Of a stretch of 42,895 bases of DNA, positions 18,065 to 27,805 are shown piece by piece (the stretch's first letter is position 1; the number at the start of each line of letters is the position of its first letter). Under the pieces are notes generated by a model, which made no database searches, had not been told where the DNA came from, and saw nothing but the letters and a program-made list of their open reading frames with translations. The position numbers and the translations under genes are program-made. Location of the stretch: IMG/VR virus record IMGVR_UViG_3300033064_001110, positions 1 through 42,895 of that record; one strand, written 5' to 3'. The stretch comes from a virus.

Positions 18065-18093
18065 ATAGTACCAAAGGAGGGTGGGCTTGTCAA
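18065..18093 (-). promoter_or_regulatory. Internal promoter after the tape measure gene
   Basis: TTGACA (18088-18093) is followed after 17 bp by TACTAT (18065-18070) on the minus strand. The TGA stop of the tape measure gene (18090-18092) is part of the -35 box. The predicted start point lies just before the ribosome site of the 81-residue gene, so the leader would be very short. Confidence 0.65.
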
Positions 18094-19796
18094 GTCTGAG
18101 CTACAGCCCTACGGTCAATCCTTGGAGCACCCTTGCCAGAATGTTTGTTGATTAGCCCGTTGATGGTTCTAGCGGTATCCTGGCCACCCACTACGCCGTT
18201 GATGTTAAAGATGATGGTTTGCGTACCCGAGTCCTCTCTATCTTCCCTAGGGGTCAATGACGGCACTCCTGTGGCACTTGCTCCACCGCCTAGAGGGGCT
18301 CCGCCACCAGGGATGGCAGCGCCGGACGCATTAGCTTGACCTTCGCTTCGGAGAGATGAAGAAGCAGCCATCATTACACCACCCGCAATCGCCAGCGCAA
18401 TACCACCGGCAATTGCAGCATATGGATTCATGGATTGAATAGCTAATAATCCAATACCATATGCAACCATTGCAGCGCCAACCTTAATTGCAAACTGGCC
18501 AAGTAAATCCAAAACAGATGCGAGTAATGCAGATCCATGTACTTCTTGTTGAAACATCATTTGCCCTAATGTTTCCCCAAACATGACCGACAGTTGAAGA
18601 TACCCATTCATTAATGAACTATTGACAGCCTGGGCAATGCCCATGCTACCTCTGCCATATTCTTCTTGCGCTGCTAGCCGCTTCTGTAATTCGTCTTGTT
18701 CCATCTCAGTTATGCGCTCTGCCTGAGACTGTGCAAAGTCAAATTCAATATCACGCTGCTGCTGTTGACCACGTTCGAAGAATCCCATGTCGCCTTCAGG
18801 ACCTGCACCCGGTTCTTGTCCAATGAATCCTAAACCAGCTATTCTTTCAGCTTCAGACTGGACAGGCTTTAACTCTGCCGTCTTCTTCGCTTCTTTTAAT
18901 TCGGGCAGTGGCGGCGGCTCAATTATATTTGGCACCAGTGGCTTAACCTGTGTAATGATTCCAAAAAATTCTGGTAGCTCATTCCACATCTTTGCTACGT
19001 CTTCTACTACCTCGGTCATTTCCTTTAGAATAATATTAAGAACGGCAGAATCATTTATAGTCGCTGCAAAGTCTGATTTTAAATTGCCAAGGGCTACCCC
19101 TAGTTTGTCATATTTATCAGTTGCTAAAACAATAGCTTCGGTACTATCACCATGCTTTTCTGCTAGCGCGGCAACCAATACCTCTTGAGTTTTGAGCGCT
19201 CTTTCTGTTCTGGTTAAAGTTCCGTTTAGTTTCTCAAACTCTTCAACCTCCGCTGCTACCTCATCGGCCAACTCACCAAATACCCTGCGAAGGGATCTTG
19301 CATTACCACTAGCGATAGCTGCTGATACACTTGATTCAATTGTTTCAAATGCCTGCCCGGTTTCCTTGCTGGCATCCCTCATCTCTCTCAGTAGGAGATT
19401 GACGCCTTCGGCATTGGTTCCAAATCTAGCAAGCGTGTTAGCAAACTTCATTAAGTCCGTATCGGTACGAGTAAAATTGACAGACTTTCTAAAGTTATTC
19501 ATTGACGTTGCAAGGTTGCCGAAGTTCTTTACAGCAGCCTCGCCTAGCATCTTGTCAACAGCGCCTTCACGGCCAAGTGCTGAGACCTCTTTCATTATCT
19601 TAACAACAGCCGCAAGCGCAACGCCAACAGCAACAACACCGATGGCTAGTTTTTTATAATCGGTGGCTCCCTTTTTTGCTCCTTCACTAGTGGCATCCTT
19701 GAGTTTCTTAGTATTCTTTTGGGCCTTCTTCAGATCGGGATTAAGGGTATCGGTAGTCCCTAAGTCCACTTTAAGTGTTGCGTCTTTTTTAGCCAT
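18090..19796 (-). CDS. Tail tape measure protein
   Basis: In this 568-residue protein, a basic N-terminal coiled coil leads to a hydrophobic span (LAIGVVAVGVALAAVV, about 50-65). A long helical body follows, then a Gly/Ala-rich membrane-like zone (about 430-485), a Gly/Ser linker and a C-terminal FNINGVVGGQDTARTI...GAPRIDRR segment like those at tape measure ends. It follows the two chaperone frames, the invariant order in siphoviruses. By the usual rule of about 0.15 nm per residue the tail would be near 85 nm. The ribosome site is poor and the start overlaps the chaperone frame, so coupling is likely. It is short for the family. Confidence 0.85.
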   Translation of the reverse strand: MAKKDATLKVDLGTTDTLNPDLKKAQKNTKKLKDATSEGAKKGATDYKKLAIGVVAVGVALAAVVKIMKEVSALGREGAVDKMLGEAAVKNFGNLATSMNNFRKSVNFTRTDTDLMKFANTLARFGTNAEGVNLLLREMRDASKETGQAFETIESSVSAAIASGNARSLRRVFGELADEVAAEVEEFEKLNGTLTRTERALKTQEVLVAALAEKHGDSTEAIVLATDKYDKLGVALGNLKSDFAATINDSAVLNIILKEMTEVVEDVAKMWNELPEFFGIITQVKPLVPNIIEPPPLPELKEAKKTAELKPVQSEAERIAGLGFIGQEPGAGPEGDMGFFERGQQQQRDIEFDFAQSQAERITEMEQDELQKRLAAQEEYGRGSMGIAQAVNSSLMNGYLQLSVMFGETLGQMMFQQEVHGSALLASVLDLLGQFAIKVGAAMVAYGIGLLAIQSMNPYAAIAGGIALAIAGGVMMAASSSLRSEGQANASGAAIPGGGAPLGGGASATGVPSLTPREDREDSGTQTIIFNINGVVGGQDTARTINGLINKHSGKGAPRIDRRAVAQT

Positions 19797-20115
19797 GATC
19801 TTTTTTGGCCTTATCTAATCTCTGTCTCTCAACTTGATTATCAAGCTTCCTCAGAAGTCTCATTGCATCAACGTATCTTGCTGGGTGTTCGTGGAATCCA
19901 CGACTATACGGGAGGATACCGTTTTTGTAATCGGCATATAAGGAGAAAGCATCATCGCCATTGATGATCACTAGGGTTTGACGTTCTGCAAAACACAAGG
20001 GGCATTCAGTAAGGACATATTCTATATCCTTGGTAGCCCCTTCGTATGGGTAGTGGCCCTTGCTGCCGTGTCCTATATGGGCGGGATGTTCTGAAGAAAG
20101 GACACGGAAGGCCAC
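19789..20115 (-). CDS. Tail assembly chaperone, downstream frame (gpT-like extension)
   Basis: This 108-codon frame begins at GTG 20115, overlapping the TAG of the first chaperone frame, and has no good ribosome site. It is in the -1 frame relative to the upstream gene and is joined to it in frame if ribosomes slip at A AAA AAC (20121-20127). The product would be a fusion of about 243 residues, the counterpart of lambda gpGT, which binds the tape measure and tail tube protein during assembly. Contents include a CPLCF motif and a basic C-terminus (DNQVERQRLDKAKKDHG). Separate initiation at the GTG by coupling remains possible. Confidence 0.75.
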   Translation of the reverse strand: MAFRVLSSEHPAHIGHGSKGHYPYEGATKDIEYVLTECPLCFAERQTLVIINGDDAFSLYADYKNGILPYSRGFHEHPARYVDAMRLLRKLDNQVERQRLDKAKKDHG

Positions 20116-20519
20116 TATGAGTTTTTTAGTTCGTCCCTATTGATCACGCAGCGTTTGACGATAGCAGCGCCGATGCTGATCATTTCACCGTCTGACAGTC
20201 CACTCTTTTTGATCCATGACTTACTCACAAGCCCAGCCTTTAAAGACTTTGAATCAGTCCACGGCTCACCGTCCCGCTTGCCTACGTTCTCGATGCGTTT
20301 GGTGTGACGCCTGAAGGCTCTAAGCAGCATAGGATAGCCACCACCATTCATGTATTCCATGCGGTCTTCAATATCAGGCTCATTGCAGACATACCTGATA
20401 AGCTCTTTACCGTCCTGTGCTACAAGATGGGACGGATCCCAGTCCTCAAGATACGTGATGTAATCCGAACTCTCGATGTCCAGCGCCGGATCTGGTTCCG
20501 AAAAAAGTACAATGCTCAT
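20115..20519 (-). CDS. Tail assembly chaperone, upstream frame (gpG-like)
   Basis: This 134-residue protein starts at ATG 20519 behind AAGGAGGGGTA. It lies between the tail tube and tape measure genes, where gpG-type chaperones are found. The sequence is acidic at the N-terminus and helical later, with a basic middle (RAFRRHTKRIENVGKRDG). It ends ELKNS, and the last codons CTA AAA AAC contain a correctly phased slippery heptamer two codons before the TAG. Most ribosomes would terminate to give this short form. No sequence family is recognised; the call rests on position and the frameshift. Confidence 0.75.
   Translation of the reverse strand: MSIVLFSEPDPALDIESSDYITYLEDWDPSHLVAQDGKELIRYVCNEPDIEDRMEYMNGGGYPMLLRAFRRHTKRIENVGKRDGEPWTDSKSLKAGLVSKSWIKKSGLSDGEMISIGAAIVKRCVINRDELKNS
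20121..20127 (-). promoter_or_regulatory. Programmed -1 frameshift site A AAA AAC
   Basis: In the zero frame the codons are CTA AAA AAC TCA TAG. The heptamer A AAA AAC is the X XXY YYZ pattern most efficient in bacteria. After a one-base backward slip the frame continues CTC ATA GTG GCC into the downstream chaperone frame with no stop. The site lies just before the zero-frame stop and upstream of the tape measure gene, as in lambda G/GT and most siphoviruses. Confidence 0.85.
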
Positions 20520-20528
20520 TACCCCTCC

Positions 20529-21755
20529 TTATGTTTGATCGCCGAAAATTGTAAACGTCCATTCTTTGATATCTTCAGCAGGACGTAAAGGTTTGATTTC
20601 TAAGTCCCAAGCCATGATGCCGTTGACATCGCTCTTTGTCCTGGTCATTATCTGGCAACGCCTGAGAGAAAGCGCCGCACTATTTGGGAATGTTCCCATC
20701 GTAGTCATCCACGCGAACTCCGTACCATCGTCGTAATATGACTCCGGCAGGAACGTCAACTCTGGATCATCCATTACCGTCACTGTCAGCATAGGTCCAC
20801 GTTCTGTTAGTATCCATTGGCCCCTTGCATTGGTTGAGCATGCGTTGGTATTTTCAGACCATACCAAGCCAGTATCGAAGCTCATGGAGGCCATCGCCAC
20901 AGCTACACCATCAACGGTGGAACAAGATCCATTAACGCTAATGGAGTTGGCCTGAGTCGGGATAGCAGAAGCGCCACCGGCTACAGTGATATATGGCGCT
21001 GCATCATCCGCCCTTGCTTTGGAGTCTGCTAGCATGTCCCACTGTAACTGCCAGAATGCGCCTGGGTCTGTCCCTACTGCACCCGCTATGACCAGGTTAC
21101 CTAAACACCCCGCCACGGTATCAACGATTGAATCCGTCCCTGTAGGGATGATTGAGTTTGCAACGATTGAAACCGAAGTGCCTCCACCGTCAATGGGTGT
21201 GATGTCTGTTCCAGCGTACATGATACCATCGTCTGTCGGTTGAACACTGATGGCGTCAACAGTGTAGAGCGTTGCACTTACGCCTGCTGATATAGATTGC
21301 ACTTGGCCCACTTCAGGAGTAGCTGTCCCATTGTAAGATACTGCAAGAATATCACCCACGGCAGGATCGTCGCCATCATGCTGCAATACGGTTGTGGTTG
21401 AAGATGCCGCTGTAAGCCCCTCAGACGTTCCTGCTGATGCCGTAACACATGCTGCTAGCAGATCATCATACTGAGGGTTTAGATCCGCCACAGAGCCGTC
21501 TGCGTTGGTATCGGTGCCACCCATGAGAGCAAGAGAGAGTTTAGCCGTTGCTGATTTTGTGCCCTGCTCAAGTTGCCCACTCATCATATCCGCTCTGCTC
21601 AGATTCAGATCAATCTGCTCAGTAGTGCCGGTCAGCTCCAAGCTATCATCCACCGGTTGGATCTGCTGATAGTCTGCGTCTGTAGTTCTCGCAGTTCCAA
21701 AGGTTGCCTCATCGGCGACGAATACATCAAACTTATTACTTGGATACCTGCTCAT
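20529..21755 (-). CDS. Major tail tube protein
   Basis: This 408-residue protein precedes the chaperone pair, the standard position of the tail tube gene. The first 90 residues (a KFDVFVADEATFG start, later SATAKLSLALMGG) and the last 130 residues have the alternating beta pattern of tube proteins. The middle contains Ser/Thr/Gly-rich repeats with ISVNGSCSTVDGV, suggesting inserted Ig-like or decorating domains, which explains the length above the usual 150-300. Start overlaps the previous stop (TAATG). Abundance is expected to be high. Confidence 0.7.
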   Translation of the reverse strand: MSRYPSNKFDVFVADEATFGTARTTDADYQQIQPVDDSLELTGTTEQIDLNLSRADMMSGQLEQGTKSATAKLSLALMGGTDTNADGSVADLNPQYDDLLAACVTASAGTSEGLTAASSTTTVLQHDGDDPAVGDILAVSYNGTATPEVGQVQSISAGVSATLYTVDAISVQPTDDGIMYAGTDITPIDGGGTSVSIVANSIIPTGTDSIVDTVAGCLGNLVIAGAVGTDPGAFWQLQWDMLADSKARADDAAPYITVAGGASAIPTQANSISVNGSCSTVDGVAVAMASMSFDTGLVWSENTNACSTNARGQWILTERGPMLTVTVMDDPELTFLPESYYDDGTEFAWMTTMGTFPNSAALSLRRCQIMTRTKSDVNGIMAWDLEIKPLRPAEDIKEWTFTIFGDQT

Positions 21756-22953: not shown

Positions 22954-23210
22954 TATTTGACCTTCTTCAGCTTGCCATCTATTAGCTCATAGCCTTCATT
23001 GATGTCTGCCGGGATATTTCCATCAAAGTCAACCACATCAAAACCAGCATTGCAGCCGCCTACTCTGAGGTGTTTGTTTCCCCATTCGTCAATCCGGTAT
23101 GCATTCTTGCCCTCAATGGAGATAGTTTCAGGAGCGGGGATTTTAATATCCACCACATCAGCAACTATCATCACTTTGTCAGAACCCTTCATTTTGATTA
23201 TCTTTTTCAT
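22953..23210 (-). CDS. Hypothetical 85-residue protein
   Basis: The start at 23210 overlaps the end of the beta-helix fibre gene (ATGA) and its own stop overlaps the next start (TAATG). The sequence has an N-terminal basic strand (KKIIKMKGSDKVMIVADVV), a central Gly-rich turn region and a C-terminal ELIDGKLKKVK. A compact beta fold is likely. It resembles no family I can name; a minor capsid or fibre-attachment factor would fit the position. Confidence 0.5.
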   Translation of the reverse strand: MKKIIKMKGSDKVMIVADVVDIKIPAPETISIEGKNAYRIDEWGNKHLRVGGCNAGFDVVDFDGNIPADINEGYELIDGKLKKVK

Positions 23211-25438
23211 ACTGTCGCCAATTCTCCGGTTTTGTTACCGGTCCCATTGTCATCAAGATTTGCCCCGTCACAGTCTCTACAACTTCCAGTGATTGAGTTG
23301 TAGTTGGAGCCTGCAAAGAAGTCTACACCATCAGATAGATTCGCCGTATCGTCTGTGATGTTTTGGATTGACACCACATAATCACTGTAATCGCCCTGAG
23401 AGAATAAACCCAAGTGGGATGATGCGTTTGTCGTTGCTATGCCTTCAAGTTTTATATTATGGGTGTTGTGGGTGCCGACAGTAATTACGGTTGCATATGT
23501 TGAGGTCGTGGTCGCTGCAATATCTTTTGCATATATTTTGTAGTTGTTATAGTTTCCTCCCAATGCTGCACAATATACCGCGCCGGCATGAGCATCACTG
23601 TAATCAGGGTCCAGCTTTATAAGGCATCCTGACAGGTCGTTTCGATCTCCTACTGATTCTATTATGCGATAAGTAAGCGCGCTATCACCCTTGCCTGCTA
23701 ACGTCAAATTCCCAGTTATGGTGATATCATCATTTGAAACTTGGAGCTTCTGGTCAACTGCTAGATTCATGACCACATGATCAAAGTGGATATTCTGCCC
23801 GTTTAATGCAATTGGATCAGTTGTTTCTGCATATGTTCCACGGGTAACAAAGATAGACTTATTTGCAGTTGCACCGGCCAGCCCTGCTGCAACCGTGGTA
23901 TAGTCACCCCCACCCGCTGCATCAACTATAACATCATAGGTCCCGCCAGTCATTGCATCGAGCGTATCAAATGCCAACTGGGAATTGACATCCGTTGCAG
24001 ACAGGTTGCCACTGAAGGCGCTGGCATCAATGGGTCTGGCGTAATAAGTGAACGTACCAGCTATCACATTGCCATCAGCGGCTATAATCTCATCATAAGA
24101 AGACGTAGCAGTCGCAGCGGTATTGACAAAGAATGCATAGCTTGCACCGGCTGCATCGGTTACATGGAGATGGTTGTATGATGCCTTAGTGCTTGATGCA
24201 GTATCACCCGCAAAGAAACCATAGGCAGTGTTATTCGTAGCAACAACATGGATGTCATTCCGTATGAATTCATGGCTTGTCCCTGTTCCTCCTATATACC
24301 CAAGTCCTACTATCAGTGTTGCATCGGGATCGGTAACAGAACAGGTGCAATCTGTCATATGCACATTTCCAGAGCTTGCCAGGTCAAGGCTTATCGAAGA
24401 CACTAGCGCAGCACCTGAGTTTGAAATTGTCAGTTCATGGAGCTTATCAAGATCAATTGTCCCGCCGTTTGCCGTTACAAACGCACCCTTCTGAGCTGTG
24501 CCCCCACATGCCCCGGTATGGGTGTAGGTGTGAGTTCCATCAATTACTTTTATCATGCCAGCACCGGTCAGCTTGCCTAAGCAAGGCTGTGATGCCGCAA
24601 CAATAGCAGCACTTGAAGTCATATCAAGGCCACAGTTTGCTAGAAAGATATCGCCTGTTGATCCTGTGACATTTGCAATTGCCGATGTAGCAGCCGTGAC
24701 GGATATGGTCATATCAAAGATATGGATGCCAGTCCGAGTGTTGAAGTCAATCACATTGGCGTCTGCCTGAGTAATGATGCAATTTTCATCACCACCCATT
24801 GCCCTGATGGTGATGTTATTGGCTGGGAATGTAACCGTCTCAGTATAGGTGCCAGGGTAGACAAGGACCGTCCCGCCCGCTCCAACTGCTGTTACAGCGG
24901 TTAGAATAGAGGTGTAGTCACCTCCACTTGTGGCAACTGTCGCCGTGGTGGCGGGGTCAAGCTTTGTAAGGGCTGTGGTATTTGTGGCAACATCCGCATG
25001 GTCTGCCCCGTTGCCTGTTCTATGGGTGTTATTCAATCCTACGTCAGCATGATCAGTACCGGCAGATCCTCTATGGGTGTCATTAAGCGCAACGTTGGCA
25101 TGGTCGGTTCCGTTGCTTCCACGATGGGTATTATTCAAACCAACGTCTGAATGGTCTGTACCGGCGCTGCCCCTGTGAGTGTTAGCTAGTCCAACGTCAC
25201 TATGATCAGTTCCCACACTTCCTCTGTGAGTGGTATTCAGGCCGATAGCGGTTGCTTGTGTGCCTATGTCCGTAAGGTCCACATCTGAATCTGGCACATT
25301 GATAACCCTAGTGGTGGACGGTGATACATCACTTACCTCAAACCGTGCCTTCTTGGTAGGATCGTCATCATCAAATATATCAAATATATCGTCTTCTGCA
25401 TCTTCGGCTGTTACTGACGGATAGTGTTGAACTGGCAT
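23207..25438 (-). CDS. Fibre-like protein: 17-residue repeats plus right-handed beta-helix
   Basis: This 743-residue protein has an acidic N-terminus with a KARFEVSDVSPSTTRVINVP segment, a module seen at the base of phage fibres. Residues of about 67-150 are five 17-residue repeats (THRGSxGTDHxDVxLNN). From about 165 on, Gly/Asn/Asp-rich strands, including two GGDYTS/T...G(A/V)-type starts (about 167 and 510) followed by VYPGTYTETV and VTRGTYAETT, indicate two pectin-lyase-like beta-helices. Such proteins bind or cut glycans. Position between capsid and tail tube genes suggests a head fibre or decoration rather than a tail spike, but this is inference. No ribosome site stands out. Confidence 0.65.
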   Translation of the reverse strand: MPVQHYPSVTAEDAEDDIFDIFDDDDPTKKARFEVSDVSPSTTRVINVPDSDVDLTDIGTQATAIGLNTTHRGSVGTDHSDVGLANTHRGSAGTDHSDVGLNNTHRGSNGTDHANVALNDTHRGSAGTDHADVGLNNTHRTGNGADHADVATNTTALTKLDPATTATVATSGGDYTSILTAVTAVGAGGTVLVYPGTYTETVTFPANNITIRAMGGDENCIITQADANVIDFNTRTGIHIFDMTISVTAATSAIANVTGSTGDIFLANCGLDMTSSAAIVAASQPCLGKLTGAGMIKVIDGTHTYTHTGACGGTAQKGAFVTANGGTIDLDKLHELTISNSGAALVSSISLDLASSGNVHMTDCTCSVTDPDATLIVGLGYIGGTGTSHEFIRNDIHVVATNNTAYGFFAGDTASSTKASYNHLHVTDAAGASYAFFVNTAATATSSYDEIIAADGNVIAGTFTYYARPIDASAFSGNLSATDVNSQLAFDTLDAMTGGTYDVIVDAAGGGDYTTVAAGLAGATANKSIFVTRGTYAETTDPIALNGQNIHFDHVVMNLAVDQKLQVSNDDITITGNLTLAGKGDSALTYRIIESVGDRNDLSGCLIKLDPDYSDAHAGAVYCAALGGNYNNYKIYAKDIAATTTSTYATVITVGTHNTHNIKLEGIATTNASSHLGLFSQGDYSDYVVSIQNITDDTANLSDGVDFFAGSNYNSITGSCRDCDGANLDDNGTGNKTGELATV
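24989..25240. repeat. Five tandem 51-bp units in the fibre gene
   Basis: Five units of 51 bp encode the 17-residue THRGSxGTDHxDV repeats. The protein copies differ at about four positions each, and the DNA copies have diverged more, so the array is older than the 18-bp array at 7261. Period is constant with no gaps. Confidence 0.85.
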
Positions 25439-25441
25439 TAT

Positions 25442-25741
25442 CTATCTCCTATGTCCCATAGCCAGCACTACAGCGGTGGCCCCTGCCATTGATGTAGTAA
25501 CAGCCCTGAGTTGGGAAAAGCTGTTCTCAATTTGATATAGTCCACTTACAGTATATGACTTAATCTCTGTCCAATTGCCTCCACCAATGCGAACCTGCAA
25601 GGCACAGGTAACAGTGCCTGTCAGGGTTACATCGACGTTCACGTATGGCCAGCGTCCAATCTCATGCTCTTGACCAGTTGCGTCAACGGCAGTGCTGAGG
25701 ATAGTTGTGTTTGCGGTCTCTTTAAGTACATAATTAGCCAT
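25442..25741 (-). CDS. Small beta-sandwich protein, relative of the fibre N-terminal domain
   Basis: This 99-residue protein can be aligned by eye with residues 1-95 of the 535-residue gene product upstream: TVTCALQV...GNWTEI against TITCIVQS...SIWNTEF, and LRAVTTSMAG against IRAVTSGESG. It therefore looks like a free copy of that domain. AAGGA lies 7 bases before ATG 25741. Given the neighbourhood it may decorate the capsid or cap a fibre. Confidence 0.6.
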   Translation of the reverse strand: MANYVLKETANTTILSTAVDATGQEHEIGRWPYVNVDVTLTGTVTCALQVRIGGGNWTEIKSYTVSGLYQIENSFSQLRAVTTSMAGATAVVLAMGHRR

Positions 25742-25770
25742 TGTTTTTCCTTCCGGCTTGAGCTACAAGG

Positions 25771-25796
25771 CAGGAGCCCGAGTTATCAGGCCCCTG
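25771..25796 (-). other. Intercistronic stem-loop
   Basis: On the minus strand CAGGGGCC and GGCTCCTG pair over 8 bp (one G-U) with a 10-nt loop. It lies in the 69-bp gap between the 535-residue fibre gene and the 99-residue gene, with no U tract after it. A role in mRNA stability, or in setting different expression of the two genes, is plausible. Confidence 0.5.
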
Positions 25797-25810
25797 GTTA
25801 CAGTTCAAGA

Positions 25811-27418
25811 TTAAGTCGGTGTGATCTCTTCAACTTCAAGATTGTTTGTTCCGGTTGGGGAAGACGGCACAGCGGAATAGTTACCAGAACTAATGGTATC
25901 CCACGGTCCACTTGTCCACCATTCCAGTGTACCGCCCGGTCTAAGGTCGGTTCCATTGGTTCCATCTCCAACCTTAATTTCAGTAGATGCGCTATCCGTC
26001 CATGGGCGCTGGATTCTCAAACCACTGAGTCCAGTTCCGGTTCCAACAGCAGTTGCCCCAATAGACGATACTGCAACGCTCGAATGTGCCGAAGCCAATA
26101 CGCGCGCAGTTCCGAATCTCTTTGCATATGCCATCAGCGAAGTTCCCGCTGTGGTGTCATCCTTATTGCCAATCACCATACCAATCTGCGTATTCGTTGC
26201 AAGATCAGCAGTGGGTAAGGCGAGGTCTTCAACAAGTGATTTGGCAATACCAACGATTGAAGTCCCGGCTGCAGTGTCATCTTTGTTACCGATAACCTGC
26301 CCAACTTCGGTATTAGTCGCAAGATCGGCTGTAGGCAATGCAAGATCCGCAACGATGCTCTTTGCGATACCAACCAATGATGTACCGGATGTCGTATCGG
26401 TCTTCATTCCGATCACTTCGCCGATGAGCAAGTTACCGGCTGCATCTTGTCCAGGCACCGCGACATCTAAGACAAGGCCATCTACCTTGCTCTCAATAGA
26501 CGTGGTGTCAACTTCAATCGCAGTGGTATCAACAAGGATAGCATCTGACACGGCATCAAGCGCGCCAAGTCTAGCGATAACAGAGCCAGCATCATTGTCT
26601 GCGTCCGACTTATTACCGACAACATCGCTCATCTGAGTGTTACCAGCGGCATCAGCAACGGCGGCTTCGATGTTGGTTGCAATGCCGTCAGCGACTGCAT
26701 CGGTAACCACAATAGCGGCTGCATTCTGTTTGGCCAGTGCAACCAGGGAAGTGCCAGCAGTGGTATCATCCTTGTTACCAACCACATCGGATACGTACAC
26801 ATTGGTAGCGGCATCAGCAGTGGCAACACCGTCATTCGTGGTGATGGCATCAATCGCAGCCTTATTGATCAGATTGAGAGAGTACAACGAATCACCGGCT
26901 GTTGAGTCGGTCTTGTTGCCGACTACATCCGATACGTATACATTTGTCGCTGCATCTGCCGTAGGTACTCCGTCATTCGTGGTGATGCTATCAATCAACT
27001 CATTGTTGAGCTGCAAGAGAGCCATTGCAGAGTCGCCACCTGAAGTATCAGACTTGTTACCGAGTACTTCATTGACCGTGGTATTCAATGCGCCATCGAT
27101 GCTGGGCACGTCAAGGTCAAGGGTGTTTTTGTCTGACAGTGCGACTGTGACTTTGCATGTTGGGGTGCCGCTCTCTCCCGAAGTAACAGCCCGGATATAC
27201 ATAACCGACTTGACGGACAGATCCTCTTGAGCATCTGCCGTCTTGCTGAATTCAGTATTCCAGATTGAGCCATCAGTTGAGGACTGCACAATACAAGTAA
27301 TTGTTACTGCGATATCCCAATCAATCGTACAATGGGTATATCTTGAGACATCTAACGCCTCCCCTGTAGTGGACACTGATACAGTATCCAGTAGGGTTTT
27401 AGAAATGGTAGCACTCAT
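25811..27418 (-). CDS. Fibre-like protein with seven GNK-type repeats
   Basis: In this 535-residue protein, residues 1-95 form a beta-sandwich-like domain shared with the 99-residue neighbour. Residues of about 115-430 hold seven copies of a VxGNKxDTTAGTSLxxxxK unit separated by helical or coiled segments of 20-50 residues. One copy has GMK instead of GNK. The C-terminal 90 residues form a different beta-domain (IQRPWTDSASTEIKVGDG). Trimeric fibre architecture is likely. AGGAGGTTAGCCT precedes ATG 27418. Position close to the major capsid gene suggests a capsid fibre. Confidence 0.65.
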   Translation of the reverse strand: MSATISKTLLDTVSVSTTGEALDVSRYTHCTIDWDIAVTITCIVQSSTDGSIWNTEFSKTADAQEDLSVKSVMYIRAVTSGESGTPTCKVTVALSDKNTLDLDVPSIDGALNTTVNEVLGNKSDTSGGDSAMALLQLNNELIDSITTNDGVPTADAATNVYVSDVVGNKTDSTAGDSLYSLNLINKAAIDAITTNDGVATADAATNVYVSDVVGNKDDTTAGTSLVALAKQNAAAIVVTDAVADGIATNIEAAVADAAGNTQMSDVVGNKSDADNDAGSVIARLGALDAVSDAILVDTTAIEVDTTSIESKVDGLVLDVAVPGQDAAGNLLIGEVIGMKTDTTSGTSLVGIAKSIVADLALPTADLATNTEVGQVIGNKDDTAAGTSIVGIAKSLVEDLALPTADLATNTQIGMVIGNKDDTTAGTSLMAYAKRFGTARVLASAHSSVAVSSIGATAVGTGTGLSGLRIQRPWTDSASTEIKVGDGTNGTDLRPGGTLEWWTSGPWDTISSGNYSAVPSSPTGTNNLEVEEITPT

Positions 27419-27421
27419 AGG

Positions 27422-27805
27422 CTAACCTCCTATCTGTTTTACATAGTTTTTTCGTGGCTCTTCTTTCATGTGCATCATGACAGAGATATGATTATCAAGG
27501 TGCTGGCCTGCAATCGCTGGCTTGATGCTTGGCCAGTATCGCTTCAGAAATTTCATCTTGGCTGCTCTGTCATCCTCTACCGATATCTCTGGCTTATAGA
27601 GTTCCGTCTTTCGCTCATACTCTGATGGATCCTTGGGCACTTTATTACCCCTTGCAATATCAGAACGACTGATAAGGATATCAATCAAAGTCTTCTGCCC
27701 ATCATGCAGGATAAGCACACCATTCTTATCGAACAGGTACTCAAACCCTCCAGACCTTACCGGAAAGTTCGGATACTCAGATTCGAATGCAATCATTTTC
27801 GCCAT
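27422..27805 (-). CDS. Hypothetical 127-residue protein in the head block
   Basis: AAAGGGGGGAGTC precedes ATG 27805. The N-terminal half reads as beta strands (GFEYLFDKNGVLILHDG), and the C-terminal half as basic helices (AAKMKFLKRYWPSIKPAIAG) with His and Met clusters (HISVMMHMKEEP). No family is recognised. A capsid completion or fibre-attachment role fits the position. Confidence 0.55.
   Translation of the reverse strand: MAKMIAFESEYPNFPVRSGGFEYLFDKNGVLILHDGQKTLIDILISRSDIARGNKVPKDPSEYERKTELYKPEISVEDDRAAKMKFLKRYWPSIKPAIAGQHLDNHISVMMHMKEEPRKNYVKQIGG

What the first reader, a model, noticed from the sequence alone, without database searches (positions are those of the whole stretch)
20115..20519. 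Textbook -1 frameshift site joining two tail assembly chaperone frames
The first chaperone frame ends CTA AAA AAC TCA TAG. The heptamer A AAA AAC is correctly phased, and a -1 slip enters the overlapping 108-codon frame without a stop, giving a fusion of about 243 residues just upstream of the tape measure gene. The downstream frame has no good ribosome site, only a GTG at the TAGTG overlap. The arrangement is known for lambda G/GT; the sequences themselves are not recognisable relatives, so it is a new example.
Basis: partly seen in the sequence, partly recalled or inferred. Interest (0 to 1): 0.7.

Follow-up and report, generated by a model that had tools for sequence, protein, structure and literature searches.

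The report
Phage tail chaperone -1 frameshift site
This orphan phage almost certainly makes a short and a long version of its tail-assembly chaperone by letting a few ribosomes slip back one base at AAAAAAC, helped by a strong RNA hairpin; it is a clean new example of a widespread, well-known phage mechanism.

Summary
On the minus strand, A AAA AAC (20127-20121) is in phase with a 134-codon ORF (20519-20115), and a -1 slip opens a 243-residue fusion ending beside the likely tape-measure gene. It encloses the first ORF's stop and the only nearby start of the second ORF, a GTG without a ribosome site, whereas the phage's four other one-base-overlap junctions use ATG with some Shine-Dalgarno pairing. 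The proteins have no detectable relatives, but phages with a related capsid protein carry a phased heptamer at the same place: 19 of 25 relatives by an automatic rule, against 9 of 519 other genes. Relative phiCbK was published with AAAAAAC as its chaperone frameshift site (PMC3556154). Termination-reinitiation at the GTG is the main rival, not excluded as a minor route. Verdict: real but ordinary, a new member of a known kind. Correction: tandem slippage predicts ELKN-LIVAF, not ELKK-LIVAF. No frameshifting was measured.

The parts
20115..20519 (-). ORF1, short tail assembly chaperone (lambda gpG-like role), 134 aa, ATG with strong ribosome site AAGGAGGGGTA
   Evidence: SD pairing -12.7 kcal/mol; codon usage of the phage
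20121..20127 (-). slippery heptamer A AAA AAC, in ORF1 phase, ending 3 nt before the ORF1 stop codon
   Evidence: same position or heptamer class in capsid relatives
20115..20117 (-). ORF1 stop TAG, sharing its G with the ORF2 GTG
19789..20115 (-). ORF2, -1 frame extension (gpT-like part of the 243-aa fusion); 108 codons from the GTG, TAA 19791-19789
   Evidence: codon usage in frame only; no ribosome site
20051..20117 (-). likely stimulatory hairpin: 5' arm 20117-20099, 24-nt loop, 3' arm 20074-20066 and 20060-20051 with a 5-nt bulge; starts 3 nt after the heptamer
   Evidence: -29.5 kcal/mol, z -5.5; 4 of 2000 synonymous recodings as stable
20529..21755 (-). probable major tail (tube) protein, 408 aa, immediately upstream; assigned by position only
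   Evidence: no family or homolog found
18090..19796 (-). probable tape measure protein, 568 aa; its ATG overlaps the ORF2 end by 8 nt
   Evidence: weak matches to LIC12611 phage tail protein E 2.8e-4 and phrog_167 tape measure E 0.26

Best explanation
Most ribosomes translating ORF1 stop at TAG and make a 134-aa chaperone. A minority pause at a stable hairpin with AAA in the P site and AAC in the A site; both tRNAs slip back one base onto AAA AAA, reading resumes with CTC ATA GTG..., and a 243-aa fusion results. By analogy with lambda gpG/gpGT, the shared N-terminal part coats the tape measure protein and the added C-terminal part recruits major tail protein, so the slip rate sets the ratio needed for tail assembly. 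Shown here: phase, open frame, hairpin prediction, gene position, lineage-wide recurrence. Inferred: that slippage occurs, its rate, and the chaperone roles.
For: Phased heptamer inside the 19-nt overlap, about 0.005 expected. Hairpin just downstream. ORF2 has the phage's codon usage but its GTG has no ribosome site, unlike the four other one-base-overlap starts, which have ATG and -3.3 to -7.6 kcal/mol. Phased heptamer at the pre-tape-measure junction in 19 of 25 capsid relatives by rule, against 9 of 519 other genes, and 1 of 195 that have a comparable -1 extension. Nearest relative by shared genes, L105, has CTA AAA AAA TAG at the same place; L092 has CTAAAAAACTAA and its ORF1 is Pfam Phage_TAC_5, E 3e-21. 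RNA downstream of these sites is more structured than controls (mean z -2.7 against -0.8, p 1e-5). phiCbK, whose capsid protein is related, is reported to use AAAAAAC for its pre-tape-measure chaperone (PMC3556154).
Against: No homology of either ORF to a known chaperone, and none to the L105 counterpart of ORF1. In E. coli A_AAA_AAC is much less shift-prone than A_AAA_AAG (PMC5009743); the host is unknown. The 3-nt spacer is shorter than the usual 5-9 nt (PMC7618472) unless the first two A-U pairs open. The upstream AGGGA Shine-Dalgarno-like element is not significant: 16% of codon positions pair as well. Tape measure and tail tube assignments are weak.
Confidence: 0.9

Rival explanations
1. 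Termination-reinitiation: ribosomes stopping at TAG restart at the overlapping GTG (TAGTG), making ORF2 as a separate 108-aa protein; the heptamer is incidental.
For: One-base overlaps are common in this phage (four other junctions of this kind). Relatives L112 and L125 also have an ATG overlapping the ORF1 stop, and L125 has no heptamer.
Against: GTG and no Shine-Dalgarno here, while the four other one-base overlaps have ATG with pairing of -3.3 to -7.6 kcal/mol. The stop and GTG lie inside the hairpin stem. Most heptamer-bearing relatives have no start overlapping the stop. The heptamer would be a coincidence at about 0.005.
Confidence: 0.06
2. Transcriptional slippage: RNA polymerase adds or drops an A in the A6 run, giving mRNAs in the other frame.
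For: A homopolymer run is present at the junction.
Against: A6 is short for efficient slippage (general knowledge). Relatives use GGGAAAC, GGGAAAG or CCCAAAC at the same place, which do not offer a long homopolymer but fit tandem tRNA slippage.
Confidence: 0.02
3. The arrangement is accidental or ORF1/ORF2 act in something other than tail assembly; the hairpin is a side effect of coding sequence.
For: No recognisable homologs; in raw stability 42 of 8564 windows of the contig are as stable.
Against: Position between probable tail tube and tape measure genes, coding signature, recurrence in the lineage, synonymous null 4 of 2000.
Confidence: 0.02

Closest known systems
Lambda G/GT tail assembly chaperone -1 frameshift (Levin 1993; Xu, Hendrix and Duda 2004, cited in PMC5009743)
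   Same: Two overlapping frames just upstream of the tape measure gene, phased -1 heptamer near the end of the first, second frame lacking its own good start.
   Different: Heptamer AAAAAAC instead of GGGAAAG; no sequence relationship detected; a strong hairpin right after the site.
phiCbK gp93/gp94 pre-tape-measure chaperone (PMC3556154)
   Same: Same heptamer AAAAAAC, same position, and the phages share a related major capsid protein.
   Different: phiCbK is a much larger phage; chaperone sequences not matched to the window.
IMG/VR phage IMGVR_UViG_3300035701_000106 (L105)
   Same: Shares capsid, a connector-region protein and, more weakly, two other genes; its first ORF ends CTA AAA AAA TAG with an open -1 frame into ORF2 next to the tape measure gene.
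   Different: Heptamer A AAA AAA; ORF2 has a GTG with a good ribosome site shortly after the stop; downstream structure not significant.
Pfam PF08890 Phage_TAC_5 (XkdN-like), found in relative L092
   Same: L092 ORF1 is a clear member and ends CTAAAAAACTAA before a -1 frame.
   Different: The window's ORF1 has no match to this family.

Membership tests
Tail assembly chaperone -1 programmed frameshift (lambda G/GT type) | Phased X_XXY_YYZ heptamer in the overlap of two frames | tested here: met
   A AAA AAC at 20127-20121, phase and 19-nt overlap
Tail assembly chaperone -1 programmed frameshift (lambda G/GT type) | Second frame open in -1, coding, without a good independent start | tested here: met
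Tail assembly chaperone -1 programmed frameshift (lambda G/GT type) | Location between major tail protein and tape measure genes | tested here: inconclusive
   Order and sizes fit and relatives agree, but neither neighbour is identified by strong homology
Tail assembly chaperone -1 programmed frameshift (lambda G/GT type) | Sequence or fold homology to a known chaperone family (not required for the mechanism: the frameshift is conserved despite low ORF similarity, PMC5009743) | tested here: inconclusive
   No Pfam, PHROGs or NCBIfam match for either ORF; the single-sequence fold of ORF1 is uninformative, pLDDT 37, so fold homology could not be judged
Tail assembly chaperone -1 programmed frameshift (lambda G/GT type) | Recurrence of the site in related phages | tested here: met
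   19 of 25 capsid relatives by rule
Tail assembly chaperone -1 programmed frameshift (lambda G/GT type) | Fusion product made at a low, fixed ratio and absent from the virion | not testable with these tools
   Needs infected cells or a reporter
Pfam Phage_TAC_5 (PF08890) | Profile match above cut-off | tested here: not met
   no match for window ORF1

The most novel reading that the evidence does not exclude
The hairpin does two jobs: it stimulates slippage at a weakly shifty heptamer and hides the ORF1 stop/ORF2 GTG so that ORF2 is made only as part of the fusion, and such structured sites are a trait of this capsid lineage.
Probability: 0.2. Interest if true: 0.35.

Novelty: new member of a known kind. 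Interest (0 to 1): 0.2.

Why it matters
It gives functional labels to two orphan ORFs in a phage with almost no recognisable genes, and shows that slippery-site architecture identifies tail chaperones, and hence the tape measure gene, where homology fails. The lineage-wide excess of downstream RNA structure gives a testable set of natural stimulators. It does not change the understanding of frameshifting.

Tried and rejected
Homolog scans with ORF1, ORF2, the tail tube protein and the capsid protein alone found nothing in IMG/VR. The 27.8% match of ORF2 in jumbo Pseudomonas phages is E 0.08 or worse and was not used. The first capsid alignment was too diverse to scan; capsid plus Tripp worked. 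Terminase relatives did not contain ORF2. Upstream AGGGA as a dnaX-like Shine-Dalgarno stimulator: rejected as evidence, 16% of positions pair as well. Rfam: nothing meaningful. Single-sequence structure of ORF1: confidence too low to search. No DNA-level relative in the phage collection. A pseudoknot between the hairpin loop and downstream GGGGC was considered but not tested. The rule 'tape measure = longest ORF' picks the wrong gene in the window and in L110.

Full report
Observation. The window is a whole IMG/VR virus record of 42,895 bases whose structural genes run on the minus strand. ORF1 (20519-20115, 134 codons) ends GAA CTA AAA AAC TCA TAG. The heptamer A AAA AAC at 20127-20121 has the correct phase. 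The -1 frame is open from a TAG at 20139 to TAA at 19791-19789, and a slip gives a 243-residue protein. ORF2's only nearby start is a GTG that shares a base with the ORF1 stop.

Chance. In-phase canonical heptamers occur about 0.0008 times per codon in this window's ORFs, so about 0.005 would be expected in the six positions of the overlap. The -1 frame's 115 stop-free codons have a chance probability near 0.001, and ORF2 scores like the phage's other genes in its own frame and badly in the other frames.

Three bases after the heptamer begins a 10+9 bp hairpin with a 5-nt bulge and 24-nt loop (20117-20051): -29.5 kcal/mol, z -5.5, no dinucleotide shuffle as stable. Recoding ORF2 with synonymous codons gives a structure as stable in 4 of 2000 trials. 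By raw stability it is in the top 0.5% of 80-nt windows of the contig, so strong but not unique. The ORF1 stop and the GTG are both in its 5' arm. The spacer is short against the usual 5-9 nt (PMC7618472); if the two terminal A-U pairs open it is 5 nt.

Reinitiation. One-base overlaps occur at four other junctions in this phage, but those use ATG with anti-SD pairing of -3.3 to -7.6 kcal/mol; ORF2's GTG has +0.1. This favours frameshifting, though a minor share of reinitiation is not excluded; a few other starts in the phage, at 4-nt overlaps, also lack pairing.

Relatives. ORF1, ORF2 and the probable tail tube protein have no significant match in Pfam, PHROGs (best 0.098), NCBIfam, the phage collection or IMG/VR scans. 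The terminase and capsid protein are recognisable, and the capsid protein reaches Tripp, Rowa, Phishy, RpAliso, Mwe-JY26 and phiCbK-like phages. Capsid relatives fetched with a two-sequence alignment, together with those already held, were scanned at the junction before the tape measure gene. With an automatic rule and 85% de-duplication, 26 loci including the window were eligible and 19 had a phased canonical heptamer, none of the 19 being the window (for L003, whose tape measure gene is cut by the end of the locus, the annotated gene start was supplied by hand). The rule misses the window itself and L110 because it takes the longest ORF as tape measure; with the correct gene both are positive. 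L125 has no heptamer, and L107 and L121 no candidate. Among 519 genes elsewhere in the selected loci, 9 have such a heptamer in the last 45 nt, and among 195 with a comparable -1 extension only 1 does. Tape measure genes were picked by hand, hence the rule-based repeat.

Closest relatives. L105 shares capsid, a connector-region protein (E 3e-8) and weaker matches to two more genes; it has CTA AAA AAA TAG with the -1 frame running to its tape measure gene, which matches PHROGs tape measure profiles. L105 ORF2 also has a GTG with a good ribosome site about 38 nt after the stop, so a second route is possible there. L092 ends CTAAAAAACTAA, and its ORF1 is Pfam Phage_TAC_5, E 3e-21. Rowa and Phishy are deposited with joined chaperone genes. 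phiCbK is published with AAAAAAC (PMC3556154). RNA downstream of the sites is more structured than after other genes: mean z -2.7 against -0.8, p 1e-5. Structures downstream of phage sites had been noted before as frequent but not universal (PMC3483164).

Mechanism. The best reading is -1 programmed frameshifting giving a short and a long chaperone, as in lambda, where the ratio is about 30:1, gpG binds the tape measure and the T part binds the major tail protein (PMC5009743). In E. coli A_AAA_AAC is much less shift-prone than A_AAA_AAG (same source), so a strong stimulator makes sense, but the host and the rate are unknown. Tandem slippage after AAC is decoded gives ...DELKNLIVAFR, so the informative tryptic peptide is NLIVAFR; the ELKK form would come from P-site slippage.

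Limits. No frameshifting was measured. The roles of the neighbours as tail tube and tape measure rest on position and weak matches. The single-sequence structure of ORF1 was uninformative. The hairpin has no covariation test because no close relative was found.

Verdict. Real, correctly interpreted, and ordinary: a new member of a known kind. Interest is low, slightly raised by the hairpin and the clean lineage-wide recurrence.

Noticed in passing
window 11819-35239: Apart from terminase and the capsid protein (phrog_212, E 1.5e-31), almost no structural gene of this phage is recognised; it is a deeply divergent tailed-phage lineage whose capsid is related to those of phiCbK and Paenibacillus Tripp phages.
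   Followed up: partly
window 23207-27418: Two large ORFs (535 and 743 aa) with internal repeats (VGNKDDTTAGTSL-like and NTHRGSAGTDHADVGL-like) lie between the capsid and connector genes, an unusual place for fibre-like or decoration proteins.
   Followed up: no
window 19960-20043, minus strand: A second predicted hairpin follows the first in the 186-nt fold (z -6.4 for the whole region); a pseudoknot with the first loop is conceivable.
   Followed up: no
window 27446-27452, minus strand: Another in-phase AAAAAAC near the end of the 127-aa gene 27422-27805; its -1 frame stops after 17 codons, so probably not a programmed site.
   Followed up: yes
L105 17706-19487: Fibre-like protein with fibronectin-like and repeated kelch-like LYGGT-GKLYEWNG units directly downstream of the tail genes (by eye).
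   Followed up: no
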